DNA of 39,316 bases from Klebsiella pneumoniae. GTDB taxonomy: Bacteria > Desulfobacterota > Binatia > UBA12015. The notes below the pieces were generated by a model. It was not told where the DNA came from. It did not search any database and saw only the letters and a program-made list of their open reading frames with translations. Shown in pieces: positions 4,055 through 38,961 of this stretch (its first letter is position 1; each line of letters opens with the position of its first letter). A program made the translations under genes and the position numbers. The stretch lies in the NCBI GenBank assembly GCA_945872365.1, contig CAMBZJ010000028.1, forward strand, positions 1 through 39,316. The letters run 5' to 3'.

Positions 4055-4100
4055 CGTCACCCTCCCCGCCACCGGACGGTATCTACCCGGGCGGCGGACG

Positions 4101-4137
4101 GAAAAAAAGCGGGGCCGGAGAAACTCCGACCCCGCTT
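4101..4137 (-). terminator. Rho-independent terminator after the 4190-5188 secreted-protein gene
   Basis: On the minus strand a 14-bp GC-rich stem (arms 4107-4120 and 4124-4137, one mismatch) encloses an AAA/TTT triloop. It is followed immediately by a run of seven T (A4102-4108 on the plus strand). This is a textbook intrinsic terminator 53 bases past the stop of the secreted-protein gene. Confidence 0.92.
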
Positions 4138-5325: not shown

Positions 5326-5470
5326 TACGCCAACGAACCCCGCCACGAACCCCCAGACGCCAACTCCATCCCCCACACCCTACAGAGGGAAGAACCTCCG
5401 ATAGCGCACCGGCCCCGGTCGAGTCAACCCGAGCCTCCGAAGATTGGCCGTCCAGGCCCTCTGATGGCAC

Positions 5471-12580: not shown

Positions 12581-12666
12581 CCCGCTGTTCCTCTCCGGCG
12601 CCCGCCCCCTGTAACGGAGATCGCCCGGCCGGGAAACCTCGCGTCGAGCGCGACGACCGCGGTGCA

Positions 12667-13383: not shown

Positions 13384-14147
13384 GAAGGCGCTCCCTGGAT
13401 GGCGCCGGTGCCGAGTGGATCGCGTGGGACGTCGCGCGGCTCTCCTCCGGGTGGCACGCCGGCCCCCGTGGACTGCGCCTGTGCTGGCGCCGCCCCGCCC
13501 GGCTTGGCCGCCGGCTTGGCGGCTGCGGCCGCGGCGGCGAGGTTCGACTCTTCGGCGCTGCCCTGGACGATGCCCGACACTTCGAGGGTCGCCGATACGC
13601 TGCGCCCGGAGTTGCCGACCCTCACCCCGCCGCGCCGATTCAACTCGATGAACGGGATGCTCACCCGCAGTTGGCCGAACTCCAGGTCGGTGAGGAACTC
13701 CGCGAGGTGGCGCAGTTCAGCCGACGCGGTGATCCGCAGCGACACCTTGCGAAACGAACCCACCGCCTCGTCCTTCATGACCTGGGTCGTCTGCAGGCTC
13801 ACGCTGCGCTGGCCCGCGATCGCCGAGACCCGCTCCTGGAGGGTCGCCGCCGCGAGCGTCGGCGTCTCGCCGGGTACGAGTTGGCGGACGGTCTCTCGGT
13901 AGCGCTGCTGGAGACCCTGGAGATTTCCCGCCAGTTCCGGTGCGCGCTCGACCGTGCGCCGGGCGTTGGCCAGCCGCTCGGCGCTCAACTGGATGTCTTC
14001 CTTGATGCCGCGTCGGTAGGCCACGAGCCAGGTGATCGAGTAGCGGGCCAGCACCGCGGCGAACACCAACCCGAGCAGCGCATACAGTCGCTGCTGGCGG
14101 TTCAGGCCGCCCACCCGGGCGAGCAGGTTGGAGAGGAAGTCCCTCAT
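13380..14147 (-). CDS. gspM: T2SS platform protein GspM, 255 aa
   Basis: A short cytoplasmic N terminus and one membrane segment (RLYALLGLVFAAVLARYSITW, ~20-40) precede a coiled-coil-like stretch (~50-90) and a ferredoxin-like domain (~95-205). The last ~50 residues are Ala/Pro/Gly-rich and of low complexity. GspM partners GspL in the inner-membrane platform. ATGA overlap with gspL and GTGA overlap with gspC. The assignment rests on position and fold pattern; GspM sequences are weakly conserved. Confidence 0.85.
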   Translation of the reverse strand: MRDFLSNLLARVGGLNRQQRLYALLGLVFAAVLARYSITWLVAYRRGIKEDIQLSAERLANARRTVERAPELAGNLQGLQQRYRETVRQLVPGETPTLAAATLQERVSAIAGQRSVSLQTTQVMKDEAVGSFRKVSLRITASAELRHLAEFLTDLEFGQLRVSIPFIELNRRGGVRVGNSGRSVSATLEVSGIVQGSAEESNLAAAAAAAKPAAKPGGAAPAQAQSTGAGVPPGGEPRDVPRDPLGTGAIQGAPS

Positions 14148-15595
14148 TCCTCGATCTCGGCGTTGAGCGAGAAGCGCTCCTGGTTGTTCTGCACCTTGGT
14201 GACCGGCGAGGTGAATTGCGCATTGCGGAAGTGCTTCGACTTCTCGAGCAAGGGGACCAGGTCGGAGGCGGAGCGCGCGAAGCCCTCCAGCTCGACCCGG
14301 TCGTTGCGCAGCCGGAACGTCGAGAGGTAGGCGTCCTCGGGGATCACCTCGGTGAGTTCGCGCAGCAGCACCGAGACCTTGCGCTGGTCGCCCTGCACCA
14401 GGATCTTCAGGCGGTCGCGCGTCACCTTGGACTCGTCCTCGTCGCGGTGCACCTGGCGCACCTGCGGCTCGACCGCCGCAAGCTGGTCGTGGAGGGCCGC
14501 GAGGTTGCGATGGTCCTTGAACATCGCCGTTCCGAGCCAGCCGAGCGTAGCCAGCACGAGGAGGCTCGACAGCAGAAACGTAAGGACGGGCGCCCCCTCG
14601 TCCCCGGTCCGTCGCTCCTCGGGCGGCAGCAGGTTCAGGCCGGCACGATCCTCGCGCACCGCGCCGAGCGCCGTCCCGATCGCGGGTGCCAGCGTCGGGT
14701 CGGGGGCGTCGTAGAAGCCTTCGGGCGCGGAGAGCGTCCCCTCGAGGCGCCGCAGGAGATCCGGGCCGTGCGAGAGCATCTGCTCCGGCAGGCTGCCCGC
14801 GACTCCCCCGAGCAGCGCCGCCGCGTCGGCCCCGGCGCGCCAAGCGTAGACCTCGGGCTCGACCGAGGACACGACGCGGGTCTCTTCGGCGACCAGCCGC
14901 TCGACCGCGGCCGCGCTCCCGACCTCGGCCGGGCGCAGGAGATGGCTCGCGCGGAGCGCGTTGGCGACGACGAAGTCCATCTCGAGGACCCCGCCATCGT
15001 CGACCAGGGTCGCGACGGGCGCACCCTCGCCGCGCGTCGCGAACGAGACCAGGTCGAGGAGGGCGACCGGCGTGATCGTCACGCTGCGCGCCCGAACGCC
15101 GGCCTTCTCGAGCGCCGCCAGGTGATCGGCCACGACCTTGCGGGGCATGGCGACGAGCAGGACGTCGAGCTTGTCCCCGGCCTCTCGCACGAGAAAATCG
15201 TAGTAGAGTTCGCTGCGCGCGATCGGCAAGGCGCGATCCGCCTCGAACTCGACCACCTGGCGCAGGTCGTCGCGTGCCGCGGCCGGCAGCATGAGGCGCG
15301 CCAGCAGCGCGTTCCCGCGCGGCAGGCTGACGAAGCAGCGGTCCGCCCCGATCCCGTTCGCGGCGATGAATCCGCTCACCACGCGGACGAGCTCCTCCTG
15401 GCGCGCCTCGGCCTGGTCGGGGGGCGGAAGGGCGGCGACCGTCCAGTGCTGAAGCGACACCGTCGACAGGCGCTTCACGAGGTGGGCGATCCCGACGTGG
15501 CGCTGGCCGATCGAGATGCCGAGCCCGTCGAGGAAGTCGAGCCGGGTCACCTTGCGGAAGAGGCGGAGCGCATCGGTCGGCAGCGTCGGCGTCAC
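14144..15595 (-). CDS. gspL: T2SS platform protein GspL, 483 aa
   Basis: The cytoplasmic actin-like part (~20-330; GLGISIGQRHVGIAHLVK, EFEADRALPI, YYDFLV) would bind the ATPase GspE. A membrane segment at ~335-355 and a periplasmic ferredoxin-like part (~360-483; LLRELTEVIPEDAYLSTF, VELEGFARSASDLV) follow, as in PilM-PilN combined, the usual GspL plan. The GTG start overlaps the gspK stop (GTGA) and the stop overlaps gspM, so translation of K-L-M is coupled. The actin-like domain implies that a GspE exists somewhere, although none is encoded here. Confidence 0.9.
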   Translation of the reverse strand: MTPTLPTDALRLFRKVTRLDFLDGLGISIGQRHVGIAHLVKRLSTVSLQHWTVAALPPPDQAEARQEELVRVVSGFIAANGIGADRCFVSLPRGNALLARLMLPAAARDDLRQVVEFEADRALPIARSELYYDFLVREAGDKLDVLLVAMPRKVVADHLAALEKAGVRARSVTITPVALLDLVSFATRGEGAPVATLVDDGGVLEMDFVVANALRASHLLRPAEVGSAAAVERLVAEETRVVSSVEPEVYAWRAGADAAALLGGVAGSLPEQMLSHGPDLLRRLEGTLSAPEGFYDAPDPTLAPAIGTALGAVREDRAGLNLLPPEERRTGDEGAPVLTFLLSSLLVLATLGWLGTAMFKDHRNLAALHDQLAAVEPQVRQVHRDEDESKVTRDRLKILVQGDQRKVSVLLRELTEVIPEDAYLSTFRLRNDRVELEGFARSASDLVPLLEKSKHFRNAQFTSPVTKVQNNQERFSLNAEIEE

Positions 15596-16611
15596 GAGAT
15601 CTCCGCCGGCGCCATCTGGTCCATCCAGCGCTGCACGTAGACTCCCTCGCTCGATTCGCCGAGGTCGATGACCGCGCCGATGTGGGACGAGATCTTCGAC
15701 GAGGGCAGCTTCGCCTGCACCTCGACCGAGAGCAGCGTGGGGGCGAGCTCGGCCGTGAGCTTTTCGGCGACCCGCGGATCGGGCACCTTCGACTTGAGCA
15801 GGCCGAGGAGATCGCCCGCCTGGCCGTTCTCGCGGGTGTCGAGGAGCTGCGCGAGTTCCTCCTTGTCGAGTCCGAAGAAGGCGCGCAGCACCTCGGGGGT
15901 CAGGTACTGCACGTTGAGCTTCTCGCCGGGAGGGTGGAAGACGGTGAAGATGTCGTGCATCCCGATCGGGAAGTCGTCGGTTCCGCCGTAGAAGAGATCC
16001 GGCGTCACTCCCTTCACCATGAGGAGTTCCTCGACCGAGTCGAACGGCGCGTTCTTGGCGACATAGGGCCGCGGGAGCGAGGAGTAGTACTCGTTCTCCG
16101 CCCCGTTCAGGCGCTTCTCCTCGTCCTTGTCGCGCCAGTCGAGGATGCTGTCCGCGATCTCGGACGCCTTGTCGGGAGCCAGCCCGAGATTGTTCAGGAC
16201 GTGAATGAGCACCGTCTGGTCCACCCAGTTGATCGCGACCTTGCCGCCCTCGTCCACCACCCGGACCGAGACCGGGGCGCCCCACAAGTCGACGTCATGC
16301 CAGACCCCGTCGGTGGCCACCAGCGCCGGCTTCTTCTCCCCGTCATCCATGCCCTTGGCAGCCAGGGCGGCGGGGTCCTGTCCGAGCGCCTCTTCCCGGT
16401 GCGCCAGGAGGAGCCTGTAGAAGGTGAGGTTCGCCGCCGCAGAGGCAAGGTAGTAGCTCTGGGTCTCGTCCGCAAAGTTGGCCGTCGCGACCGCGTCCTG
16501 CCGCATCTCCTGGGAGAACTCGGCGCCGAGCGCGAACAGCGTGATGAACAGCCACAGGACGATCACCAGTGCGAACCCGCGCCGGTCGCCGATCGGCGAG
16601 GGGCGCGTCAC
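15592..16611 (-). CDS. gspK: T2SS minor pseudopilin GspK, 339 aa
   Basis: A prepilin-like leader (RRG|FALVIVLWLF) is followed by a hydrophobic helix and the large GspK globular insertion (~60-300). This contains NWVDQTVLIHVLNNLGL, ADSILDWRDKDEE and FDSVEELLMVKGVTPDLFYG, matching the GspK fold with its Ca-binding acidic loops. Unlike most pseudopilins, GspK lacks Glu at +5, and here +5 is Val, as expected. It caps the pseudopilus tip with GspI and GspJ. The GTG start overlaps the gspJ stop. Confidence 0.92.
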   Translation of the reverse strand: MTRPSPIGDRRGFALVIVLWLFITLFALGAEFSQEMRQDAVATANFADETQSYYLASAAANLTFYRLLLAHREEALGQDPAALAAKGMDDGEKKPALVATDGVWHDVDLWGAPVSVRVVDEGGKVAINWVDQTVLIHVLNNLGLAPDKASEIADSILDWRDKDEEKRLNGAENEYYSSLPRPYVAKNAPFDSVEELLMVKGVTPDLFYGGTDDFPIGMHDIFTVFHPPGEKLNVQYLTPEVLRAFFGLDKEELAQLLDTRENGQAGDLLGLLKSKVPDPRVAEKLTAELAPTLLSVEVQAKLPSSKISSHIGAVIDLGESSEGVYVQRWMDQMAPAEIS

Positions 16612-17354
16612 GGTTCGCCCTCGTCCCCGCCGTCGTCCGTGCCGCCGTCCTTGCCGCTGCCGTCGCCCCCGACCGCGCCCTGCTGCTGCACGGCGACCTC
16701 CGGGTCGTAGGCACCGAGCCCGTAGGCGACCGGCATGAGCGGGATCTCCTGCACCCAGTAGGTCCGGCCCTCGTTCACGCCTCCCAGCGAGATTCGCACC
16801 GCCGCGGGCAAGCCCTGCTCCTCGAGGGCATCCCACGCGTCGCGCCACTCGCTCTCGTCGCCATCGAGCCGCAGGTACTCGAAGCGGGCCGAGGAGAGCC
16901 CGTCGAGCAGGACGGTCTGCGAGGTGGGATCGGGCGCGCCGCCGCTCACCGAGTCCGCGGTGAAGATGAGTCGCTCGCCCATCGACAGCGAGCGACCATC
17001 GGTCCAGTAGGTGACCCAGCCCAGTCCCTCGCCACCTCGGTGCTGCGGGGAGGCGGTGATGAAGCTGAAGGAGCCGGCGTCGCCCCAGAAATAGGGGAAC
17101 ACCTCGTCGTTCTCGCCGTGTGCGGGATAGTTCACCGCCGAGCGTACCTGCTTCGAGATGATCGAGGTGGCGGCGCGGAAACGCGCCGAGCGCGCAGCGA
17201 AGTCCTCGCCGCGCGGAACCGCTGCGAGCGCGGTGGTAAAGACGCTGTAGGCCATCGCCATCATCACGCCGAGGAGACTCAGCGAGATCATGAGTTCGAG
17301 CAGGGTGAAGCCGGCCTCGCCGCCCCGCCCCGCGAAGGCCGGATGCTCAGCCAT
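16608..17354 (-). CDS. gspJ: T2SS minor pseudopilin GspJ, 248 aa
   Basis: The prepilin peptidase site GEAG|FTLLEL with Glu+5 and helix MISLSLLGVMMAMAYSVF is followed by a beta domain containing RSAVNYPA, FSFITASPQHRG and a pseudopilin-tip fold. The last ~25 residues are Gly/Asp-rich, likely flexible or metal-binding. It overlaps gspI by 8 bases and gspK by 4. It sits at the tip of the pseudopilus with I and K. Confidence 0.92.
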   Translation of the reverse strand: MAEHPAFAGRGGEAGFTLLELMISLSLLGVMMAMAYSVFTTALAAVPRGEDFAARSARFRAATSIISKQVRSAVNYPAHGENDEVFPYFWGDAGSFSFITASPQHRGGEGLGWVTYWTDGRSLSMGERLIFTADSVSGGAPDPTSQTVLLDGLSSARFEYLRLDGDESEWRDAWDALEEQGLPAAVRISLGGVNEGRTYWVQEIPLMPVAYGLGAYDPEVAVQQQGAVGGDGSGKDGGTDDGGDEGEP

Positions 17355-17775
17355 TCTCTTCCCCGGTCTTCGGCACGACCCGCATCGTGCCGATGCGGTA
17401 GTTCTTCGTACCCGACGTCTCGTCCCACTCGATGAGCACCGAGATCACGGCGAGCCCGATCTCGGGCTCGACCGCTCCCTCGGCCGGGGGTTCGATTCCG
17501 TCTTCCGGGCCCGCCGGTCGGATCGTCCGGCCCCAGCGATAGCCGTCGCCGATCTCGCCATGGGTCTCGCCCGCCCGCAGGTTGGGGATCCAGAGCGCCG
17601 AATCCATGAGGGCCCGCGCGTGCACCACCGCCTCCGAGCGCCGCGAAGCCGCGCGCGCGAGTTGGACGCCGCTGCCGAAGACCTGCAGCGCCGACGTCAC
17701 GCCGAGTCCCAGGATCGCCATGGCGATCGCGATCTCGAGCAGGGTGAAGCCGCGCGCGGAGCCGCGAACAACCAT
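17347..17775 (-). CDS. gspI: T2SS minor pseudopilin GspI, 142 aa
   Basis: The leader is short (MVVRGSARG|FTLLEIAIAM), with Glu+5 and a hydrophobic helix. The soluble part includes ARALMDSALW and, near the end, VLIEWDETSGTKNYRIGTM, matching GspI in length and pattern. GspI nucleates the I-J-K tip complex. It overlaps gspJ, and its ATG follows the gspH stop by one base. Confidence 0.9.
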   Translation of the reverse strand: MVVRGSARGFTLLEIAIAMAILGLGVTSALQVFGSGVQLARAASRRSEAVVHARALMDSALWIPNLRAGETHGEIGDGYRWGRTIRPAGPEDGIEPPAEGAVEPEIGLAVISVLIEWDETSGTKNYRIGTMRVVPKTGEENG

Positions 17776-17776
17776 C

Positions 17777-18256
17777 TCAGGACCGGGGGTCCTCGACCGA
17801 CACCATGCCGAGCAGCGGGTTCAGTCGGACGACGAAGCCCTCGTTCAGCGGCAACTCGCGGTCGCCGATGAGCAGGTCGACGCCCGTATTGCTTCCGTTG
17901 GGATAGAAGGTCACCTGAACCGAGCCGTCCACGAGCATCTCGCCGCCGTCCACTTGGCCGATCCGAACGCTGGGCGCGATGTCCACCGGCTTGCCGTCGT
18001 CGAGTTCCATCGCGCCACTCGAGACGTCGATCAGGACGCGCCGGAGCTTTCCCGTCTGCACCGAAGCGGCCTGGAGTCCACGCATCGTCCCCGCGACGCG
18101 CCGCACCGCACTGCGCACGTCGCGTGCACGGAGGCCGCCGTCGATCGCCGGCGCCACCAGGGTCGCCGCCATGGCGATGATCACCAGCACGATCATGATC
18201 TCGAGCATGGTGAATCCATCGGCCGAGGCGAGACGGCTTGGCTTGCCGGTCGTCAA
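17777..18256 (-). CDS. gspH: T2SS pseudopilin GspH, ~159 aa, probable TTG start
   Basis: The cleavage site ADG|FTMLEIMIVLVII with Glu+5 is clear, then a helix and a ~110-residue beta domain (VLIDVSSGAMELDDGK, VTFYPNGSNTGVDLLI) typical of GspH. No ATG or GTG is available between the gspG stop (18261) and the leader. TTG 18256 is therefore the likely start, two bases beyond a near-overlap with gspG. The ATG inside the helix (FTMLE) would destroy the signal and is rejected. Confidence 0.88.
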   Translation of the reverse strand: MTTGKPSRLASADGFTMLEIMIVLVIIAMAATLVAPAIDGGLRARDVRSAVRRVAGTMRGLQAASVQTGKLRRVLIDVSSGAMELDDGKPVDIAPSVRIGQVDGGEMLVDGSVQVTFYPNGSNTGVDLLIGDRELPLNEGFVVRLNPLLGMVSVEDPRS

Positions 18257-18260
18257 TGGA

Positions 18261-18716
18261 TCAACCCGAGAGAGAGACGTCCGCGTTGTTGCCGTCGCCG
18301 CCCGCCCGCCCGTCGGCGCCGTAACTGCCGAGGTCGTAGTTGCCGCCACTCTCGCCCGGGTTGCGGTAGATGTACGGATGCCCCCAGGGATCCATCGGCA
18401 ACTCGTCGCGCAGGTACGGGCCCGACCAGCGCGTCGCCGACGACGGCCGCTGGCGCAGCGCCGTGAGCCCCTCCTCGGTCGTCGGGTAGCGGCCGACGTC
18501 GAGCTGGTACATGTCGAGCGCGTTGCGCATGTTCTCCATCTGGACGCGGGCCGCCTTCGGCTTCGCCTTCTCGCTCTGGCCGATGAAGTTCGGTGCGACC
18601 AGCGTCGCGAGCAGGCCGATGATGACCAGCACCACGAGCAGCTCGATGAGCGTGAAACCGTCTGCCCGGGCGATGCGGCGAGCGGCCGGGCGTCCCTCAA
18701 GCCATGATCGAGTCAA
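18261..18716 (-). CDS. gspG: T2SS major pseudopilin GspG, 151 aa
   Basis: The leader ends RADG|FTLIELLVVLVIIGLLATLV. The mature part carries the GspG signature GRYPTTEEGLTAL and the Ca-site region MDPWGHPYIYRNPGE...YDLGSYGADG. GspG polymerises into the pseudopilus that pushes cargo through GspD. A GTG at 18746 overlapping the gspF stop is possible, but the TTG at 18716 has a GGAGG six bases upstream and gives a normal 20-residue leader, so it is preferred. Confidence 0.95.
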   Translation of the reverse strand: MTRSWLEGRPAARRIARADGFTLIELLVVLVIIGLLATLVAPNFIGQSEKAKPKAARVQMENMRNALDMYQLDVGRYPTTEEGLTALRQRPSSATRWSGPYLRDELPMDPWGHPYIYRNPGESGGNYDLGSYGADGRAGGDGNNADVSLSG

Positions 18717-18722
18717 TGTCTT

Positions 18723-18727
18723 CCTCC
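18723..18727 (-). promoter_or_regulatory. Strong ribosome-binding site deciding the gspG start
   Basis: GGAGG on the minus strand stands six bases before TTG 18716. No comparable site precedes the GTG at 18746. A strong site on a TTG fits the need for excess major pseudopilin. Confidence 0.6.
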
Positions 18728-18742
18728 GGGTCCTGATGCCGA

Positions 18743-19972
18743 TCACATCGGCAAATTGTTGATGCTGAAGATCGCAGAGAACATCGATAGCACGACGAAG
18801 GCGACGACGACGCCGCCGACGAGAAGCAGGACCGGCTCGAGCAGGGACGTGAGGCGCCTCACCTGCGCCCGGACCTCCTTGTCGAAGTAGTCGGCGACCT
18901 GCACCAGCATCTCGTCGAGTTTGCCGGTCTCCTCGCCGACGCTGATCATCTGCAGCGCGAGCGGCGGGAAAACCCCGGTCTGGCCGAGCGGCCCCGAGAC
19001 CCCGGAGCCACCGCGAACGCCGACCTTCACCTGTTCGATCGCCTTCGACAGCACCACGTTCCCCGAGACGTCACGGACGATGTCGAGAGCCTGGAGCATC
19101 GGCACGCCGCTGCGCAGCAGGGTTCCGAGGGTACGCGCGAAGCGTGCGACCGAGAGCTTGCGCAGCAGGTCGCCGACGAGCAGCAGGCGCAGCTTCAAGC
19201 CGTCCCAGCGCAGGCGCCCCGCTGGCGTGCGCGTCCAGTGGGTGAAGCCCATCGTGAGGAGCGCGGTCGCGATCAGCATGAGCCACCAGTAGTTGCGCAT
19301 TGCGTCGGAGACGCCGAGCAGGAAGCGCGTCGAAAGCGGCAGCGCCTGTCCGGCCTGCGCGAAGATGGTCGCGAATTTCGGCAGCACGTAAGTAAGCAGG
19401 ATCGTGACCGAGCCCAGCGCGACGATCGTCAGGATGACCGGGTAGATGAGCGCGGAGCGGACCTCGCCGCGCAACTCGTCGGCGCTCTCGAGGTATTCGC
19501 GAAGCCGTGCGAGCACCGCGTCGAGCACGCCGCCCACCTCGCCCGCTCGCACCATGTTCACATAGAGCGGGGCGAACACCTTGGGGTGGTCGCCGAGCGC
19601 CTCGGCGAGCGACTTGCCGCGCTGCACCGACTGCAGGACGTCGGCGACGACCCGCTTCATCTCCGGGTTCTCGGAGAGCTCCGAGAGGATCGACAGGCTG
19701 CGGTCGAGCGGAAGACCCGCGGCGAGCAGGGTCGACATCTCGTGCGTGAAGACCAGCAGGTCGCGCGACTTCGGACCACGGCGCTTCAGGCTCAGGTTGG
19801 GAAGCGAGATGCTGCCGATCCCGCTGCGCTTGGCGGATGCCTCCCCGACCTTGATGGGAACGAGCCCGCGGTCCTGGAGGCGGGCGACCGCAGCCGCCAC
19901 CTCGGGGGCCTCGATGGTCCCCTCGACGACTTTTCCGTCGCCATCTGCCGCCCGGTACTGGAATTGCGCCAT
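18743..19972 (-). CDS. gspF: T2SS inner-membrane platform protein GspF, 409 aa
   Basis: Two copies of the T2SS/T4P F domain are visible (~70-195 and ~275-395). Each ends in hydrophobic segments: SALIYPVILTIVALGSVTILLTYVLPKFATIF, and a C-terminal LLEPVLLLVGGVVVAFVVLSMFSAIF. MAQFQYRAADGDGKVVEGTIEA is the usual N terminus. GspF is the rotary platform driven by GspE. It is first in the gsp run. Its 140-base upstream gap to the glycosyltransferase gene holds an AT-rich patch (20085-20110) that may be a promoter, but no clear pair of boxes. gspE, which normally precedes gspF, is not here. Confidence 0.95.
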   Translation of the reverse strand: MAQFQYRAADGDGKVVEGTIEAPEVAAAVARLQDRGLVPIKVGEASAKRSGIGSISLPNLSLKRRGPKSRDLLVFTHEMSTLLAAGLPLDRSLSILSELSENPEMKRVVADVLQSVQRGKSLAEALGDHPKVFAPLYVNMVRAGEVGGVLDAVLARLREYLESADELRGEVRSALIYPVILTIVALGSVTILLTYVLPKFATIFAQAGQALPLSTRFLLGVSDAMRNYWWLMLIATALLTMGFTHWTRTPAGRLRWDGLKLRLLLVGDLLRKLSVARFARTLGTLLRSGVPMLQALDIVRDVSGNVVLSKAIEQVKVGVRGGSGVSGPLGQTGVFPPLALQMISVGEETGKLDEMLVQVADYFDKEVRAQVRRLTSLLEPVLLLVGGVVVAFVVLSMFSAIFSINNLPM

Positions 19973-31291: not shown

Positions 31292-32524
31292 TCATCTCCG
31301 GCTCGCCTCCATGCTCACCAGGCCCGGCCGGGTCGCCTCGCCGCGCACCCGGATCGGGATCTCGACCGTGTCGTAGAGTCGCGTAGCGGTCTCGTCGAGC
31401 GCGTGCGACTTCACGACGTATCCGCCCGGGAGGAGCGGCAGATCCGGGAAGGTCAGCGAAAAGCGCCAGCGATCGTCGCCGAGCGAACGCGGCACCACGT
31501 TCTCCATGTCGCTCGAGATGCCGTAGACCGGGACGCCGTCGTCGCGCACGAAGCTCAGGTGCACATGCGGCACGGCGGCCACGGCGCGCAGGTCGGCGAC
31601 GAGCGTGATCGTGTCGCCCGGGTCGATCTCGCGCACCTCCGCCCCCGCAGCGTCGAGCACGTGGAGGTCGACGACCTCGAACTCCAGGCCGGACCCCTCG
31701 CCCGGGCGGTGGCGCGTGCCGGCGTCGGCTTCGCCCGCCTCCCCGCCACCGGTGGGCGCGCTGCCGACCTGCTCGCGGTAGTGGCGCACGACGTCGCGGC
31801 TCGAGCCGAGTTCACGCGCGACACCGCCGTCGAGCCACAGCGTGCGCTCGCACAGGCGCTGCACCTGGAAGAGGTCGTGCGAACAGAGAACGAGCGTGCC
31901 GCCGCCTCCGAGGAAGCGATCGAACCAGCGATTGCACTGGCGCTGGAAGCTGTCGTCGCCGACCGCGAGCACCTCGTCGGTGACCAGCACCTCGGGCTCG
32001 AGCTGGGCCGCCGTCGCGAACGCGACGCGCAGCTGCATGCCCGAGGAACAGGTGCGCAGGGGGCGATCGAAGTAGGCGCCGATGCCGGCGAAACGCTCGA
32101 CCTCGCGGGCGGCGCGGCGCGCTTCGCGGCGGCTCATTCCGCCCTGGAGGACGAGCCAGCCCTCGGCGTTCTCGCGTCCGGTCTCGAGCGCCTGGAATCC
32201 GGCCCCGAGGTCGAGCAGGCAGCCGAGGCGCGCCGCGACGTCGACCCGACCCGAAGTCGGACGGGCCGTTCCGGCGAGCAGGCGCAACAACGTCGACTTG
32301 CCCGATCCGTTGCGACCGATCAGGCCGAGGGATTGTCCCCGTTCGAGGGCGAAGGAGACATCGCGCACCGCCCAGAGGCCGCCGTCGACGGCGCCGGGCA
32401 CGGCACGGTCACCGCGGAGGATCCCGCGCAATAGCGGACGCAGCCGCGAACGCCCGAGCGCATAGTGCTTGGCGAGGGCGTGGGCCGCGAGTGCGCCCCG
32501 GAAGCCGGCGGGGGCTCCGGCCAT
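31292..32524 (-). CDS. wzt: Second Wzt-type polysaccharide exporter ATPase with C-terminal domain, 410 aa
   Basis: Walker A GRNGSGKS at 70-77, signature SSGMQ at ~160-164, Walker B VLVTDE at 179-184, and switch SHD. Residues ~285-400 form the Wzt-type beta-sandwich (IDPGDTITLVADLR, LLPGGYVVKSHAL). There is no permease gene beside it: the upstream neighbour is the parvulin gene, overlapping by one base (TGATG), and wecB follows. It must use one of the two Wzm proteins here or one elsewhere. The long frame to 33604 is a shadow of the parvulin gene. Confidence 0.9.
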   Translation of the reverse strand: MAGAPAGFRGALAAHALAKHYALGRSRLRPLLRGILRGDRAVPGAVDGGLWAVRDVSFALERGQSLGLIGRNGSGKSTLLRLLAGTARPTSGRVDVAARLGCLLDLGAGFQALETGRENAEGWLVLQGGMSRREARRAAREVERFAGIGAYFDRPLRTCSSGMQLRVAFATAAQLEPEVLVTDEVLAVGDDSFQRQCNRWFDRFLGGGGTLVLCSHDLFQVQRLCERTLWLDGGVARELGSSRDVVRHYREQVGSAPTGGGEAGEADAGTRHRPGEGSGLEFEVVDLHVLDAAGAEVREIDPGDTITLVADLRAVAAVPHVHLSFVRDDGVPVYGISSDMENVVPRSLGDDRWRFSLTFPDLPLLPGGYVVKSHALDETATRLYDTVEIPIRVRGEATRPGLVSMEASRR

Positions 32525-33546
32525 CAGGGTGTGGCCGGATCGAAACCGCTCTTGCTGCCCTGGAGCTTGCTCGTCGGTGCGACCGTCGCCTTCTTCGCGG
32601 CGTCGAGAAAGGCGTCGAGGTTCATCGAGGCGCCGTAGCGGCGGGCGAGGTCGTCGACACGCTTGCGCGTCGCGACGCGGCGGTACTCCTGGTTGATCTG
32701 CTCGACGAGTTTGCCGCGACACTCCTCGAGGGTTTGCGGCCGGCCGTCCTCCTTCTCGATGAGCGTGAAGATCTCCATGCCGCGCCGGGTCTTGATCGGC
32801 TCGGTTCGGCCGCCGACGCTCAGGACGCGCAGCACCTCGACACCCTCTTCCTTGCCGAGATCCGCATCCTCGATCCAGTCGAGTTCCCCGCCGGGATTCT
32901 TCGACGGAAGGTCGGAGAACTGGTCGGCCACGGCGGCGAAGGACTCCCCGGCGAGGAGTTTCGCCTGGATCGCCTCGAGGCGCTTCTGGGCCGCAGCCTT
33001 TTCCTCCTCGCTCGCGTTCTTCGCGATCTGCACGCCGACGCGCGCCAGCCGGTAGCGGACCGGCATGCGGCATTTCTCCTTGTTCATCGAGTAGTAGGAG
33101 GACACCTCTGCATCGCTCGGCTTGAGCTCGTCGGCGAGCATGGCGTCCACGTACTGGTCGGCGATCAGGTTGCGGGAGAGGTTTCCGGCCGCGCCGGCGA
33201 GACCGGGCTTCTTCGCGAGCAGTCCGTCGTCGGCCGCCGCCCGGGCGAAGAGTTCCGACTCGTACCAGCGCACGGCGAACAGGGAGCCGAAATTCCGGTC
33301 CTCGCGCATCCGTTCGACGAGCGGCCCGGGCTCCCAGGCGAGTTCCGCGGCGAGTTCGTCGACGGTCAGGGTGCGGGCGCCCACGCGCAGGACCGCACTC
33401 GCCGGAAGGCTCCCGGGGGCGGCCGTGTTCGGCGCCTGCGAGCCCGTCGGGGCCGCCTCGTCGGCCCGAGCCGAGGCAGCTCCGGCAAGGAGGGCCGCCG
33501 CCAGGGCGACCACGAGACCCAAGGTTTCCTGCTTGCCAGCTTTCAT
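32524..33546 (-). CDS. Exported parvulin-type peptidyl-prolyl isomerase / SurA-PrsA-like foldase, 340 aa
   Basis: Signal peptide (QETLGLVVALAAALLAGAASARA) and an N-terminal helical chaperone part with LTVDELAAELAWEP and a SYYSMNKEKCRMPVRYRLARV transition. A single parvulin domain spans ~165-270: AGESFAAVADQFSDLPSKNPGGELDWIEDADLGKE and EPIKTRRGMEIFTLIEK. A helical C-terminal arm follows. Such proteins assist folding of exported and outer-membrane proteins. ATG 33546 has GGAGG five bases upstream; the frame also offers GTG 33552. It overlaps the orphan wzt, an unusual link between protein folding and glycan export. A candidate promoter lies at 33550-33620 (TTGGAA, 16-base spacer, GATATT). Confidence 0.88.
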   Translation of the reverse strand: MKAGKQETLGLVVALAAALLAGAASARADEAAPTGSQAPNTAAPGSLPASAVLRVGARTLTVDELAAELAWEPGPLVERMREDRNFGSLFAVRWYESELFARAAADDGLLAKKPGLAGAAGNLSRNLIADQYVDAMLADELKPSDAEVSSYYSMNKEKCRMPVRYRLARVGVQIAKNASEEEKAAAQKRLEAIQAKLLAGESFAAVADQFSDLPSKNPGGELDWIEDADLGKEEGVEVLRVLSVGGRTEPIKTRRGMEIFTLIEKEDGRPQTLEECRGKLVEQINQEYRRVATRKRVDDLARRYGASMNLDAFLDAAKKATVAPTSKLQGSKSGFDPATP

Positions 33547-33843: not shown

Positions 33844-34857
33844 ATGAAGAAAATCAGTCGGAATTCCGCGCCTTTGGCCCTGCTCGGGCTGGCGCTCTTC
33901 GGACTCGCGGGGACGGCTCTCGCGGCTCCGCTCGTCATCGGTGGGAAGCCGTGCGGCTCCCTCGACAAGGTGCGCAGCGGCGACACGGCGGTCTGGAAGA
34001 TCGACGGCTGCCAGCCGCTGACCGACCTGGTGAATGCCGCACAACCGACCCCCACCCCTACCCCGTCGAGCCTGTGCGGCAACGGCCTCGTCGATGCCGG
34101 CGAGGTCTGCGACAAGGGCGATCCGTACACCTGCTTGGGCAAGGGTCCGAGCGCCTGCGTGAACGGCTGCACGTCCTGCAGCGGGTCGACCGTCCCGACG
34201 CCGACTCCGGCGCCGCAGCCGACCAGCACGCCGCCGGTCGACGCGAGTTGCGACATGGGCGTTCTGCCGCCGCTCAACCTCGACGGATTCCCCGGCTGGG
34301 ACGGCGTCCGCAAGGTCTCGATCGACCCGGGCCAGACCCAGACTTGGTGCGTCAACCTCGACAGCGTCACCAGCAAGTGGACGATGTCCGTGATCGACCG
34401 GACCGGCGCCTGGCAGTGCATGTACCACACGGTGGACTACATCCCGCCAGTTGGTAGCGGGCTCAAGACCAGCAGTTGGACGGACGCAACGACCAACACT
34501 ACCGCGACGTGGCGCAACTGGAACGGCGCGGCGCTGCCGCAGGGGACGTGGAAGGTCCGTGTCACGGCATCCTCCGCCTTCCCCGATTGCCCGATGTCCT
34601 ACGAGGTCAACGCCCACCCGTACGCGGGAAGCTCCGCCCCGGGCCGCCGATGGCGGTCCGGGGCGTTCCCCGGGGGCGTCCTTTCGCGCAACCAGGTAGA
34701 GGTGTCGCGCGTCACCAGTACTCGTCGAGCACGGCTCCGAGTCGACGCAGGATCCCGAGTCCGAGGGTCCAACAGGCGAGCGTCGCCGCGACGCAGACCG
34801 CGACCGGCAGCCACGAGAGCGGCTGCCCCAGTACCACGGCGCGGTAGAGCCCGATGA
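33844..34857 (+). CDS. Secreted Cys-rich protein with Myxococcus-type disulphide repeat, ~337 aa as read; natural end probably near 34630
   Basis: ATG 33844 has AGGAGG eight bases upstream. A signal peptide (LALLGLALFGLAGTALAA) leads to a short domain, then a TPTPTP linker and CGNGLVDAGEVCDKGDPYTC. That stretch matches the Myxococcus Cys-rich repeat (TIGR02232/DUF4215 type), which is common in secreted deltaproteobacterial proteins. A second Thr-Pro linker and a Trp-rich beta domain (~145-265) follow. After residue ~263 the sequence turns into an Arg/Pro-rich tail. That tail passes a strong hairpin at 34635-34665 and lies antisense to the wzm end (34712-34857). No stop occurs in any of the three plus frames across the hairpin, so a lost stop or sequence error is likely. 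Only the part to ~34630 looks like real protein. Confidence 0.7.
   Translation: MKKISRNSAPLALLGLALFGLAGTALAAPLVIGGKPCGSLDKVRSGDTAVWKIDGCQPLTDLVNAAQPTPTPTPSSLCGNGLVDAGEVCDKGDPYTCLGKGPSACVNGCTSCSGSTVPTPTPAPQPTSTPPVDASCDMGVLPPLNLDGFPGWDGVRKVSIDPGQTQTWCVNLDSVTSKWTMSVIDRTGAWQCMYHTVDYIPPVGSGLKTSSWTDATTNTTATWRNWNGAALPQGTWKVRVTASSAFPDCPMSYEVNAHPYAGSSAPGRRWRSGAFPGGVLSRNQVEVSRVTSTRRARLRVDAGSRVRGSNRRASPRRRPRPAATRAAAPVPRRGRAR
34635..34665. terminator. Putative bidirectional terminator hairpin between convergent genes
   Basis: A 14-bp stem (34635-34648 with 34652-34665, one G-T pair) around a GAT loop, in the gap between the convergent Cys-rich protein gene and wzm. Neither side has a good T-run, so intrinsic strength is doubtful. 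It may act as a transcription roadblock or 3'-end stabiliser. Confidence 0.5.
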
Positions 34858-35506
34858 GGCCTGCAACCGGGTTCAGCTGCGCCAAGGGTTGCAGCGCCGC
34901 TGGCAGGGATTCGATCCGGTAGAGGACCGGCGACGCGAAGAAGAGCAGCGTCAGAATCGCGTTCACCAGGTGCATCGTGTCGCGCACGACGAGTTGCAAC
35001 GGCGCCAGCACGAGCCCGATCCCGGCCGCCAGCAATGCTCCCAGCAACATCACAAGCGGCAGCCAGAGAAGTCGGCCCGACGCCGGCAGCAGACCCGCGA
35101 CCGTGAAGATTCCGAGGAAGACGAGGAATCCCGCGGCCTGCAGAACCGCGGAGCCGGCGACCTGCGACAAGACGCACAGGGCCGGCGGGATCGGCATCTT
35201 CTTGAGCAAGGCCGCCTGGTCGACGAGCGCACCCATGCCGCGCACCACGCCCTCCTGGAAAGCCCACCATGGCCAGAGGCCGCAGAAGAGCGTCGCGACG
35301 AATACGCCGCGCGGCGTGTCGCCCGCACCGCCGTAGACGAATCCGAAGATGAGCCCGTAGGAGACGATCTGCAGCAGCGGGTTCAGCAGCGACCAGACCA
35401 GCCCGAAGCGCGAACCGGCAAAGCGCGAGCGCACGTCGCGACGCGCCAGTTCCAGGAGAAGACGAAGGCGCGCCCCGGCCGGCGACGCCCCGGAGTCGAG
35501 GCTCAT
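34712..35506 (-). CDS. wzm: Second Wzm-type ABC-2 polysaccharide exporter permease, 264 aa
   Basis: LLELARRDVRSRFAGSRFGLVWSLLNPLLQIV is the amphipathic entry plus first membrane segment of the family, followed by five more hydrophobic segments. FCGLWPWWAFQEGVVRGMGALVDQAALLKKMPIP and ASPVLYRIESLP align with the first Wzm in the window. The start overlaps the upstream Wzt stop (ATGA). Its 3' end overlaps, antisense, the tail of the open frame of the plus-strand gene, a further sign that the tail is not coding. Confidence 0.92.
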   Translation of the reverse strand: MSLDSGASPAGARLRLLLELARRDVRSRFAGSRFGLVWSLLNPLLQIVSYGLIFGFVYGGAGDTPRGVFVATLFCGLWPWWAFQEGVVRGMGALVDQAALLKKMPIPPALCVLSQVAGSAVLQAAGFLVFLGIFTVAGLLPASGRLLWLPLVMLLGALLAAGIGLVLAPLQLVVRDTMHLVNAILTLLFFASPVLYRIESLPAALQPLAQLNPVAGLIGLYRAVVLGQPLSWLPVAVCVAATLACWTLGLGILRRLGAVLDEYW

Positions 35507-36663
35507 GCGGATTTCACCGCGTCGCCCCAGAAGTGTCGCAAGCGCACCGTTCCGAGTTCACGGCTCGAGCCGACGCAGTCGAATTCCGAGTCTCCCTCGA
35601 GCGCCTGCGGGGCACCGGTCGAGTCGACGAGGCGCACGCGATAGCGCCCGGGCAGCAGGGGAAGTGCTTCGAGATGCACACCCCGGCCCGCGACATCGAG
35701 ACTCGCGACGCACACGCCGTTGGGACGCAGGATCTCGATCCGGCTTCCGTCGGCGGCGGGCGGGTCGAACAGGAGATCGACCGGACGCCCTTCGGCCAGC
35801 CGTGCCCCTTCGCGACCGTCGCTCCTCAACAGGAACCGGTGCCGGGGCTTGGACGCAGAATCCGGGTCGCTCATGCTGCTGCGCGACGGGTTGCCGGCCT
35901 CGGTCTCGTCCGCGGATGGCGGCAGATCGGAGGCTTCCACCGCAGCGCGATAGGCTGCGGTGACCTCCCGCGCGGGCCCCCTGGCGCGCACCCGCCCGGA
36001 ATCGAGCCAGATCGCGTCCCGGCAGAGCTTCTCGATGTGGTAGAGGTTGTGGGAAGCGAGCACGAGCGATCCGCCCGCGGCGAGAAAGTCGCGGACGTGA
36101 TGCGAGCAGCGTCTCTGGAACTCCTCGTCACCCACCGCGAGCACCTCGTCGGCGACCAGGATGTCGCAGGGGATCGCAATGGCCATTGCGTACGCGAGGC
36201 GCACCCGCATCCCCGAAGAGTAGGTACGTACAGGTTCCTGGGCGAATCGGCCGAGGCCAGAGAACTCGAGGATTCCGCGCCAGGCGGTGGCTCTCCGGGC
36301 TGACCCCAGACCGTCGAGACCGAGCAGCATATGCGCGTTGTCGTGACCGCTCAGGTCGTCGAAGAAGCCGGCACCCAGGTCCAAAAGGCTCCGCCGAGAG
36401 CCTCGCACCAGAAGTTTCCCGGAACTCGGACGAGCCACGCCGGCGAGGATCCTGAGCAGAGTGCTCTTGCCGGCACCGTTGCGGCCGATGATGCCAAGGG
36501 AGGCTCCCGGCTCTACCTCGAGGTCCAGGGGTTCGAGCGCAGCAGGTCCTGGAACGTCCCGGAGGGGGGCTGTCGACCCGAACACCAACTCTCGGAGCCC
36601 TGCATCGCGGTAGGTCTTGGTGAGACCTCGCGCCAGCAGGACGGGAGTGGAAGCAGCGTTCAT
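35503..36663 (-). CDS. wzt: Third Wzt-type polysaccharide exporter ATPase, 386 aa, divergent C-terminal domain
   Basis: Walker A GRNGAGKST at 60-68, signature YSSGM at 148-152, Walker B ILVADE at 168-173, switch SHN. Residues ~280-386 form a short, divergent domain (LLRSDGREGARLAEGRPVDLLFD, LEALPLLPGRYRVRLVDS) about 30 residues smaller than in the other two Wzt proteins. It may recognise a different glycan end or none. ATG 36663 follows a G-rich site and sits eleven bases from the T-run of the preceding terminator, so its promoter is unclear; it may be read through. It is coupled to wzm by ATGA. Confidence 0.9.
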   Translation of the reverse strand: MNAASTPVLLARGLTKTYRDAGLRELVFGSTAPLRDVPGPAALEPLDLEVEPGASLGIIGRNGAGKSTLLRILAGVARPSSGKLLVRGSRRSLLDLGAGFFDDLSGHDNAHMLLGLDGLGSARRATAWRGILEFSGLGRFAQEPVRTYSSGMRVRLAYAMAIAIPCDILVADEVLAVGDEEFQRRCSHHVRDFLAAGGSLVLASHNLYHIEKLCRDAIWLDSGRVRARGPAREVTAAYRAAVEASDLPPSADETEAGNPSRSSMSDPDSASKPRHRFLLRSDGREGARLAEGRPVDLLFDPPAADGSRIEILRPNGVCVASLDVAGRGVHLEALPLLPGRYRVRLVDSTGAPQALEGDSEFDCVGSSRELGTVRLRHFWGDAVKSA

Positions 36664-36673: not shown

Positions 36674-36720
36674 AAAAAAATCGAGGGAGGCGACCGGGTT
36701 TCCCCCGATCGCCTCCCTCG
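36674..36720 (-). terminator. Strong rho-independent terminator after the 36746-38257 secreted-protein gene
   Basis: A perfect 12-bp stem (arms 36682-36693 and 36709-36720) can extend inward, and a seven-T run follows on the minus strand (A36674-36680). It starts 26 bases past the stop codon, the same arrangement as at 4101-4137. Confidence 0.95.
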
Positions 36721-36745
36721 GTTCAGTTACGCTTCGAGAGCTGGA

Positions 36746-38257
36746 TCAGCTTCCGATCGCGTAGAAGACCTCGTACGGAGCAGGCACCGCGCCACCGTAC
36801 ACACCCGAGGGCGCGAGGCTCGCGTTGATGTACTCCTGCAGGATCAGGGTCAGGGCCGGGAGGCCCTCGTAGCGCGAGTAGAACGAGCCGAGCAGGTTCA
36901 CGTTCAGGCCGTCCTGACCATGGACCTGGGTCGCGTTCGACGGATCGCGGACCAGGTTGAAGTCAACCCAGCCGGCGAGATGCTCGCGGGGGATCGAGGT
37001 CACGTTGATGATCTCATCCGACACCGCGCTCAGGTTGAGCGAGGTCGGGCTGTCGTTGGCGACGATGTTGACCACCGTTACCTCGCGAGGCAGCACGCAC
37101 ACGCCAGCCGCCGTGCCCGGGGAGAAGATGTCGTCACCCGCCGGGACCGAGTCCTCGAGGCGGTTGTAAGGAACGCAGCCGATCTGCTCGCCACCGAGGC
37201 CGTTCGCCGCGCCCTGGCAGGAGAACGGAGGCTCGGCCACGCCGTTCCAATCCGTGTTGGGCGCATTGCGCGAGCAGGAGTAGTGCTTGGTCGGCAGGGT
37301 GATCACCACACGGGTCGAACCACCCGTGATGCTCTGGATGTCATACTGCGCCATCACCCGGCTCTTCGACAGGATGAAGTTCATCTGGTCGACGCAGTCC
37401 TGGCCGGACTGGCTTTCCGCGACGCAGTTGGTCAGGTCGGGAGAGCCGCTCGAAGGGGTCTGGGTCACTTCCCCGCCACCGGCGACGATGTAACGCGAGA
37501 TCGCCTCGGCGTTGTAGATGTGCGACACGCCAGCCGCGACGCGGATGAGGATGACCTCGGCCGACAGCGCGTTCGACGGGGTGCGGTCGCCGTCGATGAT
37601 GCGGTGCCAGGTGTCTCCCTCGCGGTTCACCTGGCCGTCGATCGGCTCGCAGGGCAGAGCCTCCTCGGCGATGACCTCGAAGTATCCGCGCTGGATGTCC
37701 GCATCGGTCAGGCCCACCGGCTTGGTGAACGTCCGGCCCGAAGCCAGTGCCGGCGAGGTGGTGAAGGTAGCCGCACCGCTCGCCGTGCGGATCGGGTCGT
37801 TCGACACGACGCGCGGCGTGCCGGAACCGGCGGGCAGTTCGATCTTGCCGGTCCAAACCTCGGCGCAGGACAGAGCGACGTCGAAGTCGAGCAACTCGCG
37901 GCTGGTCTTCGACTCGCGGAAACGCACGCGGGCGAGGATGCCGCCACGGGAGTTGTACCCGTCGCTACCCGGGTTGTTGGGGTTGCTGTTCAAAATCTGG
38001 ATGTTGACGTCTTGGGCGTCCGAAGAGCCCGTGCTGCCGTTCTTTACCTGGCGGACGTCAAAGTATGTGCCCCACAGCCACTGGCCGGTCAGGCCAGGAT
38101 TGAGGGTCTGCGTCGCCTCGGTGTTCGCCGTCGAGATGCCGAGCACGTTCGTGTACGGGCTCCCGTCCGAAACGGCCATCGCCGTCGACGCCGACACGGC
38201 GAGCACGCCTGCGGCAGCCAGCGCGGCCAACGCTCCTGATGGTCTCCAACGATTCAT
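36746..38257 (-). CDS. Large secreted protein of unknown function, 503 aa
   Basis: A Sec signal peptide (SGALAALAAAGVLAVSASTAMA) is followed by a beta-rich chain. Near the N terminus it has the stretch RGGILARVRFRESKTSRELLDFDVALSCAEVWTG (~85-118). I recall related 'RVRFRE.K.SRE.LDF' segments in exported hypothetical proteins of proteobacteria, but cannot attach a function. Eight or more cysteines occur in pairs. No anchor or sorting tail is seen. ATG 38257 has GGAGG five bases upstream; ATG 38275, with its own GGAGG, would add six residues. The gene is preceded by an NTF2-like gene and closed by its own strong terminator, repeating the arrangement at 4101-5995. GC content is lower than its neighbours, consistent with high expression. 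Candidate T2SS cargo or surface-layer protein. Confidence 0.82.
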   Translation of the reverse strand: MNRWRPSGALAALAAAGVLAVSASTAMAVSDGSPYTNVLGISTANTEATQTLNPGLTGQWLWGTYFDVRQVKNGSTGSSDAQDVNIQILNSNPNNPGSDGYNSRGGILARVRFRESKTSRELLDFDVALSCAEVWTGKIELPAGSGTPRVVSNDPIRTASGAATFTTSPALASGRTFTKPVGLTDADIQRGYFEVIAEEALPCEPIDGQVNREGDTWHRIIDGDRTPSNALSAEVILIRVAAGVSHIYNAEAISRYIVAGGGEVTQTPSSGSPDLTNCVAESQSGQDCVDQMNFILSKSRVMAQYDIQSITGGSTRVVITLPTKHYSCSRNAPNTDWNGVAEPPFSCQGAANGLGGEQIGCVPYNRLEDSVPAGDDIFSPGTAAGVCVLPREVTVVNIVANDSPTSLNLSAVSDEIINVTSIPREHLAGWVDFNLVRDPSNATQVHGQDGLNVNLLGSFYSRYEGLPALTLILQEYINASLAPSGVYGGAVPAPYEVFYAIGS

Positions 38258-38300
38258 TCCGACCTCCTCTTTCATACTGCCTCCTCTCGGGAAAGCTCGT

Positions 38301-38310
38301 TCAAGCTTGA
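38301..38310. repeat. Perfect 10-bp palindrome in the leader of the large secreted-protein gene
   Basis: TCAAGCTTGA lies about 44 bases before ATG 38257 and is overlapped by a longer inverted repeat with AAGCT at 38293-38297. It could be an operator or mRNA hairpin. The rest of the 224-base gap (38258-38481) shows no terminator or clear promoter. Confidence 0.35.
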
Positions 38311-38481
38311 GATTCGAGGCTTTCGCCAATCCCAAAAACCCGACTTCCTCTTCCGTCGGCTCGCCCCTCGGCACGCCGTCGCACTGCCCTAACTACTCCC
38401 TGACGCCCTCGGTGGCGGGTCCAACGGAACACCACCAGGCCGACGCGACTCCCAGCCTGATACACCGAACCAAGCGGCGCT

Positions 38482-38961
38482 TCAAGCCCCCATGTCGGGC
38501 GGCCAGCGATACCAGCCGCCGTTCTCCTGAACCCACCTTTCCCGCACCACGTTCTTGGTCTCGAGGTCGGTGAGCCCGGGCTTCGCGATCTTGTACGTGA
38601 TCTCCAGATCGACCAGCCCACCCTTATCGTCCAATCCCACGTCCTTGACCGTCGCCTTGGTCCACACGACGATTCCGCCTGAGCGCGCGAAACCCGCCGG
38701 ATCCACCCTGCGGCGGTAGGCCTCGGTCATGTAGGCGTAGGCGCCCATGCTGTCGCCCGCGAGCCGCATGTCCCAGAAGTGCTGTGCCCGCCGGCCAAGC
38801 GCCTTGGCCGACTGCTGATTCAGCGGCCAAATCGCTTCGTACCAAGCGAAACCCAGCGCCAGGAGCGCCAAGCCCGCGACGGCCGCCAGCATGCCCTTAC
38901 GGCTCCGCTTCGAGCCGATCTCGCTCGAAGCCAAAGCTACCGGTACCCGGCCCGTCTCCAC
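38482..38961 (-). CDS. NTF2-like membrane-anchored protein, ~159 aa
   Basis: A basic stretch (GSKRSRKG) and one membrane segment (LAAVAGLALLALGFAWYEAIW) are followed by an NTF2-like domain: AQHFWDMRLAGDSMGAYAYM, VDLEITYKI, ending ERWVQENGGWYRWPPD. It aligns in outline with the lipoprotein at 5471-5995 but has a signal anchor instead of a lipobox. The start is uncertain: GTG 38961 is used because the basic residues should lie inside the cell; TTG 38979 and ATG 38895 are alternatives. It stands directly upstream of the large secreted-protein gene. No active-site residues are evident. Confidence 0.68.
   Translation of the reverse strand: METGRVPVALASSEIGSKRSRKGMLAAVAGLALLALGFAWYEAIWPLNQQSAKALGRRAQHFWDMRLAGDSMGAYAYMTEAYRRRVDPAGFARSGGIVVWTKATVKDVGLDDKGGLVDLEITYKIAKPGLTDLETKNVVRERWVQENGGWYRWPPDMGA

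What the first reader, a model, noticed from the sequence alone, without database searches (positions are those of the whole stretch)
36674..38961. Two-gene module (NTF2-like anchor plus secreted protein plus terminator) at the right end, mirrored at the left end
An NTF2-like membrane protein gene is followed by a gap of ~220 bases, a large Sec-exported protein and a very strong intrinsic terminator. The same order occurs at 4101-5995. The two NTF2-like proteins share an outline (FxxLR/FWDMR helix, DWVQRDGSWY versus RWVQENGGWY ending), while the secreted proteins differ in size and sequence. Both copies sit beside Wzm/Wzt pairs. A repeated anchor-plus-exoprotein pair suggests a dedicated partner, maturation or surface-attachment system not covered by known T2SS or exosortase schemes.
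Basis: partly seen in the sequence, partly recalled or inferred. Interest (0 to 1): 0.7.

Follow-up and report, generated by a model that had tools for sequence, protein, structure and literature searches.

The report
NTF2-fold partner of T2SS-linked exoproteins
Next to a bacterial protein-export machine, a small membrane-tethered protein gene is paired twice with a gene for an exported protein, and the same pairing recurs in other bacteria of the phylum, which suggests a dedicated helper-and-cargo system that has no name yet.

Summary
Two NTF2-like proteins (NTF_R 38482-38961, NTF_L 5471-5875, minus strand) are each followed by a 206-282 bp gap, an exported protein (SecR, SecL) and a strong terminator. 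The two NTF proteins are homologous (hhalign E 1.3e-10); an AlphaFold model of NTF_L has the NTF2 fold. In Binatia the next gene is a secreted protein in 30 of 30 readable cases. A strong terminator follows 25 of 27 of those with a readable 3' end, against 5 of 279 other genes in the same loci. Most gaps hold a conserved sigma70-like promoter, so Sec looks like its own transcription unit. Across the phylum, 25 of 44 loci with an NTF ORF have a Sec-superfamily gene within two genes. NTF sits inside a T2SS operon in 3 loci, yet only 2 of the 25 Sec loci show a T2SS gene in the fetched stretch. T2SS loci without NTF have no Sec (0 of 212 proteins). Best reading: a membrane-tethered periplasmic escort for an exported surface protein family, in this window through the T2SS. 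It works like T2SS chaperones but does not meet their definition. Function and T2SS dependence are inferred.

The parts
38482..38961 (-). NTF_R: NTF2-like protein with an N-terminal hydrophobic anchor and no lipobox (159 aa from the 38961 start; the true start is uncertain, the contig ends at 39316)
38459..38485 (-). Conserved sigma70-like promoter of SecR: TTGA box (here overlapping the NTF_R stop codon), 15 bp, TGTATC
   Evidence: alignment of 9 gaps
36746..38275 (-). SecR: exported protein with a signal peptide; 10 alignment columns are Cys in at least 9 of 10 rows; second in-frame start at 38257
36674..36720 (-). Strong intrinsic terminator after SecR (17-bp stem, T run)
35503..36663 (-). 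Wzt2-type ABC ATPase
34712..35506 (-). Wzm2 ABC-2 permease
32524..33546 (-). PPIC-type peptidyl-prolyl isomerase; PPIC genes also occur in 4 of 44 phylum NTF loci
9734..19972 (-). T2SS genes gspF-G-H-I-J-K-L-M-C-D; no gspE found in the window
8065..9678 (-). Protein with C-terminal TPRs (N-terminal part membrane-spanning by eye)
5958..8068 (-). Wzm1 (7208-8068) and Wzt1 (5958-7211) directly upstream of NTF_L
5471..5875 (-). NTF_L: NTF2-like predicted lipoprotein (lipobox ASAC); NTF2 fold in an AlphaFold model
5400..5427 (-). Conserved promoter of SecL: TTGACT-N16-GCTATC, both boxes invariant in 9 of 9 aligned f1 gaps
4190..5188 (-). SecL: exported protein, modelled as two beta-sandwich domains
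4099..4137 (-). Strong intrinsic terminator after SecL (14-bp stem, T run)
2618..4054 (-). BNR-repeat propeller protein (lipobox by eye); a BNR homologue follows SecL in the 15 f1/f6 relatives examined; BNR and NTF share one ORF in some other genomes

Best explanation
A membrane-tethered periplasmic NTF2-fold protein is the dedicated partner (escort or assembly factor) of an exported beta-sandwich protein family that, in this window, leaves the cell through the neighbouring T2SS. Inferred course: Sec crosses the inner membrane with its signal peptide; NTF, held by a lipid or a transmembrane helix and facing the periplasm, binds it, with a PPIC isomerase and a BNR or FG-GAP propeller protein assisting in some genomes; the T2SS exports it; it ends at the surface together with the Wzm/Wzt-exported glycan. 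Shown: NTF2 fold of NTF_L, homology of the two NTF proteins, recurrent adjacency to Sec in the phylum, T2SS linkage in the window and in some other loci, promoter and terminator around Sec (sequence evidence only). Inferred: binding, T2SS dependence, surface location.
For: NTF2 fold. NTF homology. NTF next to a secreted protein in 30 of 30 readable Binatia cases (10 NTF_R, 11 NTF_L, 5 f6, 4 f5); these rows are partly syntenic and not independent. Phylum: 25 of 44 loci with an NTF ORF have a Sec gene (union of three profiles) within two genes, random placement in the same loci mean 13.7, maximum 21 in 2000 draws; immediate same-strand neighbour in 19. SecR homologues beside NTF in G516, G387, G435, A4 profile E 1e-35 to 1e-46. 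Terminator 25 of 27 against 5 of 279; phylum Sec genes 18 of 25 against 27 of 330. Promoters. NTF inside T2SS operons L230, L244, L255. In the 44 stretches: Wzm or Wzt 8, T2SS 7, BNR 5, PPIC 4. BNR and NTF in one ORF in L247, L258 and L253. 14 T2SS loci without NTF: 0 Sec in 212 proteins. Anchor switches between relatives of one genus, G029 lipobox and G098 none, which fits a tether. SecR's conserved Cys fit folding in the periplasm.
Against: No experiment. 19 of 44 phylum loci have no Sec found; seven of these (L232, L234, L236, L249, L260, L262, L264) carry a W-rich protein, which matches TGase_elicitor in the one searched (L232). 19 fetched loci of SecL and SecR paralogues, and the second T2SS locus, have no NTF gene (best E 0.1), so NTF is not beside every member. 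The G029/G098 secreted proteins were not joined to the superfamily. Sec's own promoter argues against strict co-regulation. Codon bias gives no sign of high expression (SecR rank 25 and SecL rank 44 of 105; the index did not separate ribosomal genes).
Confidence: 0.4

Rival explanations
1. NTF is a surface or outer-membrane receptor that anchors Sec after export.
For: NTF_L lineage has a lipobox in 16 of 16 rows; glycan exporters lie beside it in the window and a Wzm or Wzt gene is in 8 of 44 phylum loci; a BNR or FG-GAP propeller neighbour could be surface exposed.
Against: NTF_R and some f5 NTFs have a hydrophobic anchor and no lipobox (lipobox in 0 of 10 R, 4 of 7 f5), which would hold them at the inner membrane.
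Confidence: 0.22
2. NTF is a T2SS part such as a pilotin or secretin accessory, and Sec is next to it only because T2SS clusters carry their cargo.
For: NTF directly after gspD in G029, inside T2SS operons in three loci, lipobox in many rows.
Against: T2SS clusters found with the window's gspL in six other Binatia families have no NTF hit, and in the loci fetched gspD is followed by unrelated genes; f5 genomes G072 and G062 keep gspD-Wzt without NTF-Sec; 23 of 25 phylum Sec loci show no T2SS gene; NTF_R has no lipobox.
Confidence: 0.12
3. NTF serves the Wzm/Wzt glycan pathway, for instance binding glycan or lipid, and couples it to Sec as a glycan-binding surface protein.
For: Wzm/Wzt flank both window pairs and a Wzm or Wzt gene is in 8 of 44 phylum loci; NTF2-like domains may bind ligands without catalysis (abstract of PMC3924330); weak lectin similarity of the SecL N-terminal half (Z 4.8).
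Against: 36 of 44 phylum stretches show no Wzm or Wzt; G072 and G062 have T2SS with Wzm/Wzt and no NTF.
Confidence: 0.14
4. Chance adjacency inside a large conserved envelope gene cluster, with no functional tie.
For: In f1 and f6 the whole cluster is syntenic, so these rows are not independent.
Against: The pair recurs in many families with different flanks and both orders, and BNR and NTF share an ORF in three loci.
Confidence: 0.05

Closest known systems
T2SS chaperones CpaB, LipB and the Lif foldases (PMC4713064, passages read)
   Same: Small membrane-anchored periplasm-facing protein encoded beside an exported T2SS cargo; NTF_R has the same predicted topology.
   Different: NTF2 fold, whereas CpaB was predicted SRPBCC and Lifs are steric foldases; NTF_L is a predicted lipoprotein; Sec has its own promoter; need for secretion untested.
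T2SS pilotins PulS/OutS and AspS (recalled; PMC3542185 and PMC3276575 seen only in the listing)
   Same: Lipoprotein near gspD in some genomes.
   Different: Absent from many T2SS clusters of the same class, not always with a lipobox, NTF2 fold.
NTF2-like domains DUF4878 (Cj0202c, 3K7C) and MecA_N of penicillin-binding proteins (PMC3924330, abstract)
   Same: Same fold: 3K7C Z 10.7, 2.4 A over 96; PBP5 Z 11.7, 2.5 A over 105.
   Different: No Pfam family reaches its cut-off for the NTF proteins searched; different gene context.
VirB8-type T4SS proteins (search listing only, PMC8012802)
   Same: Bitopic inner-membrane protein with an NTF2-like extracytoplasmic domain, as predicted for NTF_R (recalled).
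   Different: No relationship tested; no T4SS gene among the window's annotated genes.
GspN-dependent surface lipoprotein export by T2SS (PMC12802150, abstract)
   Same: An accessory protein for a cargo subset at the T2SS.
   Different: GspN is AsmA-like and its cargo is lipidated; SecL and SecR show no lipobox by eye.

Membership tests
NTF2-like superfamily | Alpha+beta NTF2 fold | tested here: met
   NTF_L model pLDDT 87.6; Z 11.7 to the PBP5 NTF2-like domain, 2.5 A over 105 residues, Z 10.7 to 3K7C. NTF_R not modelled; homologous by profile.
T2SS chaperone as defined in PMC4713064 | Encoded adjacent to the effector | tested here: met
   30 of 30 readable Binatia cases; that the cargo is a T2SS effector is unproven.
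T2SS chaperone as defined in PMC4713064 | N-terminal transmembrane domain | tested here: not met
   Fits NTF_R (10 of 10 hydrophobic anchor, no lipobox) but not the NTF_L lineage (16 of 16 lipobox) (simple hydropathy and pattern). So the family as a whole is not filed here.
T2SS chaperone as defined in PMC4713064 | Co-regulated with the effector | tested here: inconclusive
   Own promoter for Sec in most gaps; read-through from NTF is possible.
[quoted passage not shown]
   Needs mutants.
T2SS pilotin | Outer-membrane lipoprotein | tested here: not met
   NTF_R (10 of 10) and 3 of 7 f5 members lack a lipobox.
T2SS pilotin | Present wherever the cognate secretin is | tested here: not met
   T2SS clusters in f2, f4, f8, f10, f14 and f16 without an NTF hit. 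Pilotin-independent secretins exist, so this lowers but does not exclude.
Exosortase/PEP-CTERM substrate (SecL, SecR) | C-terminal sorting signal | tested here: not met
   No NCBIfam match for SecL or SecR and no hydrophobic-basic tail by eye.
T2SS substrate (SecL, SecR) | Signal peptide and T2SS-dependent release | not testable with these tools
   Signal peptides by eye; release untested.

The most novel reading that the evidence does not exclude
A family of membrane-tethered NTF2-fold adaptors, spread over the phylum, defines an export and assembly pathway for one superfamily of surface proteins, coupled to the T2SS in at least some lineages, with a propeller protein, a PPIC isomerase and an ABC glycan exporter as further parts, and with lipid and transmembrane anchors interchangeable.
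Probability: 0.32. Interest if true: 0.75.

Novelty: new variant of a known kind. Interest (0 to 1): 0.6.

Why it matters
How a T2SS recognises and handles its cargo is poorly understood, and few dedicated helpers are known. A helper family with a common small fold, recurrently beside one cargo superfamily, would give a new handle on cargo selection that can be tested by gene deletion. It would also give a role to protein families that matched no Pfam or NCBIfam entry here but recur in many environmental genomes.

Tried and rejected
Codon adaptation as a sign of high Sec expression: not informative, since ribosomal genes did not score higher. Rfam scan of the window at gathering thresholds: no match. 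PDB sequence searches with the four family profiles: best E 0.85, nothing significant. SecL to SecR by plain profile comparison failed, and so did the N-terminal parts alone; only iterated profiles with phylum sequences joined them, without reversed decoys. Those E-values are for a custom set of 448 proteins plus 448 reversed copies, SecL rows are partly duplicated in it, and the profile seeded from SecR did not itself reach SecL, so some drift cannot be excluded. NTF search of plasmids: one partial hit, E 0.02. Literature searches (open-licence library only) found no description of this pair in their listings; passages of PMC10553843 and PMC10580974 were checked and hold no mention of NTF2. 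Chance adjacency is disfavoured. SecL fold: Foldseek had no match at E below 0.001; the C-terminal domain resembles TM1070 1nc7_B (Z 9.5, 2.8 A over 103), which gives no function.

Full report
Setting. The window is a whole 39.3 kb contig of a 3.1 Mb genome. Of 18 named loci related to SecL most are titled Deltaproteobacteria or Candidatus Binatia MAGs, two just 'bacterium' and one Alphaproteobacteria; I call the class Binatia. The main genes are on the minus strand. Reading downstream: NTF_R, SecR, terminator, Wzt2, Wzm2, PPIC isomerase, Wzt3, wecB, Wzy, glycosyltransferases, a trypsin-like protease, gspF-G-H-I-J-K-L-M-C-D, a TPR protein, Wzm1, Wzt1, NTF_L, SecL, terminator, BNR propeller protein. 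The same genome has a second, apparently complete T2SS with gspE on contig C9, with no NTF hit in the fetched 16 kb.

The pair. The two NTF profiles match with E 1.3e-10, although single sequences barely do. NTF_L models with mean pLDDT 87.6 and has the NTF2 fold. The NTF_L lineage has a lipobox in 16 of 16 rows; NTF_R has a hydrophobic anchor and no lipobox in 10 of 10; of 7 f5 members 4 have a lipobox and 3 do not. An unrooted tree of 32 rows separates (NTF_L + f6) from (NTF_R + f5) with 100/99 support, so the two copies here are probably old paralogues and not a recent duplication.

Conservation in Binatia. A combined NTF profile hits 26 of 148 class genomes, in families f1, f5 and f6 plus one weak f12 hit. 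In f1 and f6 the order Wzm1, Wzt1, NTF_L, SecL, BNR is kept wherever the contig reaches, with the TPR protein and gspD upstream in most and an extra gene between Wzt1 and NTF_L in two; in f1 NTF_R is followed by SecR and, where the contig reaches, mostly by Wzt2, Wzm2 and PPIC. In f5 the NTF follows gspD directly (G029) or some genes on, and a secreted protein follows it. Counting cases with a readable next gene, 30 of 30 have a secreted protein next; three of the SecR genes are cut by a contig end. Left out: G077, G095 and a second G010 hit at contig ends, G056 where a secreted ORF is 1.15 kb on, and two weak hits inside larger ORFs (G130, G003 at 688 kb).

Transcription. The gap is 154-330 bp. 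In f1 left pairs the TTGACT and GCTATC boxes are invariant in 9 of 9. In f1 right pairs a TTGA box (overlapping the NTF stop in 6 of 9, just after it in 3) is followed about 15-17 bp on by TGTA or AGTA. Five f6 loci and f5 G029 and G098 have TTGACA-type promoters there (two of the f6 by eye). None was seen in L099, L116 and L176. A stem of at least 10 bp with a T run follows 25 of 27 NTF-adjacent Sec genes with a readable 3' end and 5 of 279 other genes of the same loci. The misses are L097, a hairpin without T run, and L099, masked. So Sec looks like an insulated transcription unit.

Phylum. The NTF profile hits 47 of 395 phylum genomes, 45 of them beyond the two Binatia ones. I fetched 48 stretches covering these 45. 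In 44 an NTF ORF under 330 aa was found; in the other four the match lies in a longer ORF. In 25 of the 44 a Sec superfamily gene (union of the SecR-, SecL- and LVP-seeded profiles) lies within two genes, in 19 as immediate same-strand neighbour; random placement in the same loci gives 13.7 on average and at most 21 in 2000 draws. SecR homologues lie next to NTF in G516, G387 and G435 (E 1e-35 to 1e-46). The other 19 include contig ends, weak hits, three T2SS-operon loci and seven with a W-rich protein that matches TGase_elicitor in the one searched. Strong terminators follow 18 of 25 phylum Sec genes against 27 of 330 others. NTF is inside the T2SS operon between gspI or a pilin-like ORF and gspK in L230 and L255, and after gspI at a contig end in L244. 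Against the T2SS tie: only 7 of 44 stretches, and 2 of the 25 with Sec, show any T2SS gene. BNR and NTF matches share one ORF in L247, L258 and L253. FG-GAP proteins lie beside NTF in L240 and L254 and G091. Fourteen Binatia T2SS loci without NTF hold no Sec among 212 proteins, two of them too short to tell.

Sec superfamily. An iterated profile seeded with the N-terminal part of the G017 secreted protein holds SecL, SecR, f5, LLLPYFEVD-type and 15 phylum proteins (69 rows, SecL partly duplicated) and none of 448 reversed decoys; the SecL-seeded profile reaches the further phylum proteins, including the LVP type. The G029/G098 type did not join the profiles from the other seeds as a group; its own seed stopped at 3 members. 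SecL models as two beta-sandwich domains. No Pfam or NCBIfam family passed its cut-off for the nine Sec proteins searched.

Mechanism. I commit to a membrane-tethered periplasmic escort for an exported protein, in this window through the T2SS, confidence 0.40 (lowered from 0.45 once the low T2SS count in the phylum was set against it). The reasoning: recurrent pairing with one cargo superfamily, T2SS linkage here and inside three operons elsewhere, absence of that cargo from T2SS clusters without NTF, interchangeable anchors that by prediction face the periplasm, and folding factors in some loci. It resembles the T2SS chaperones of PMC4713064 in topology and gene order. It is not filed as one, because the lipoprotein lineage fails the transmembrane criterion and need for secretion is untested.

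Noticed in passing
L232, L234, L236, L249, L260, L262, L264: A second recurring setting of the NTF family: near a large W-rich protein (PWSGYWWP-like motif) that matches TGase_elicitor in L232, the only one searched.
   Followed up: partly
L115:2418-4307, L175:12007-12363: Between Sec and Wzt in two f5 genomes lie small coiled-coil ORFs, five similar tandem copies in L115; the L175 one matches CCDC90-like.
   Followed up: partly
window 38255-38292: SecR has two in-frame ATGs 18 bp apart, each preceded by a Shine-Dalgarno sequence; the same spacing in 7 of 9 aligned rows, counting the window.
   Followed up: partly
window 9734-12514: GspD carries a long glycine-rich low-complexity insert.
   Followed up: no
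G029 (L115) and G098 (L175): Two genomes of one genus differ in the NTF anchor: lipobox in one, hydrophobic anchor without lipobox in the other.
   Followed up: yes
L117, L118: Same-genus genomes G001 and G002 have a SecR-type gene without an NTF gene in the fetched flank, near a FabH-like gene.
   Followed up: partly
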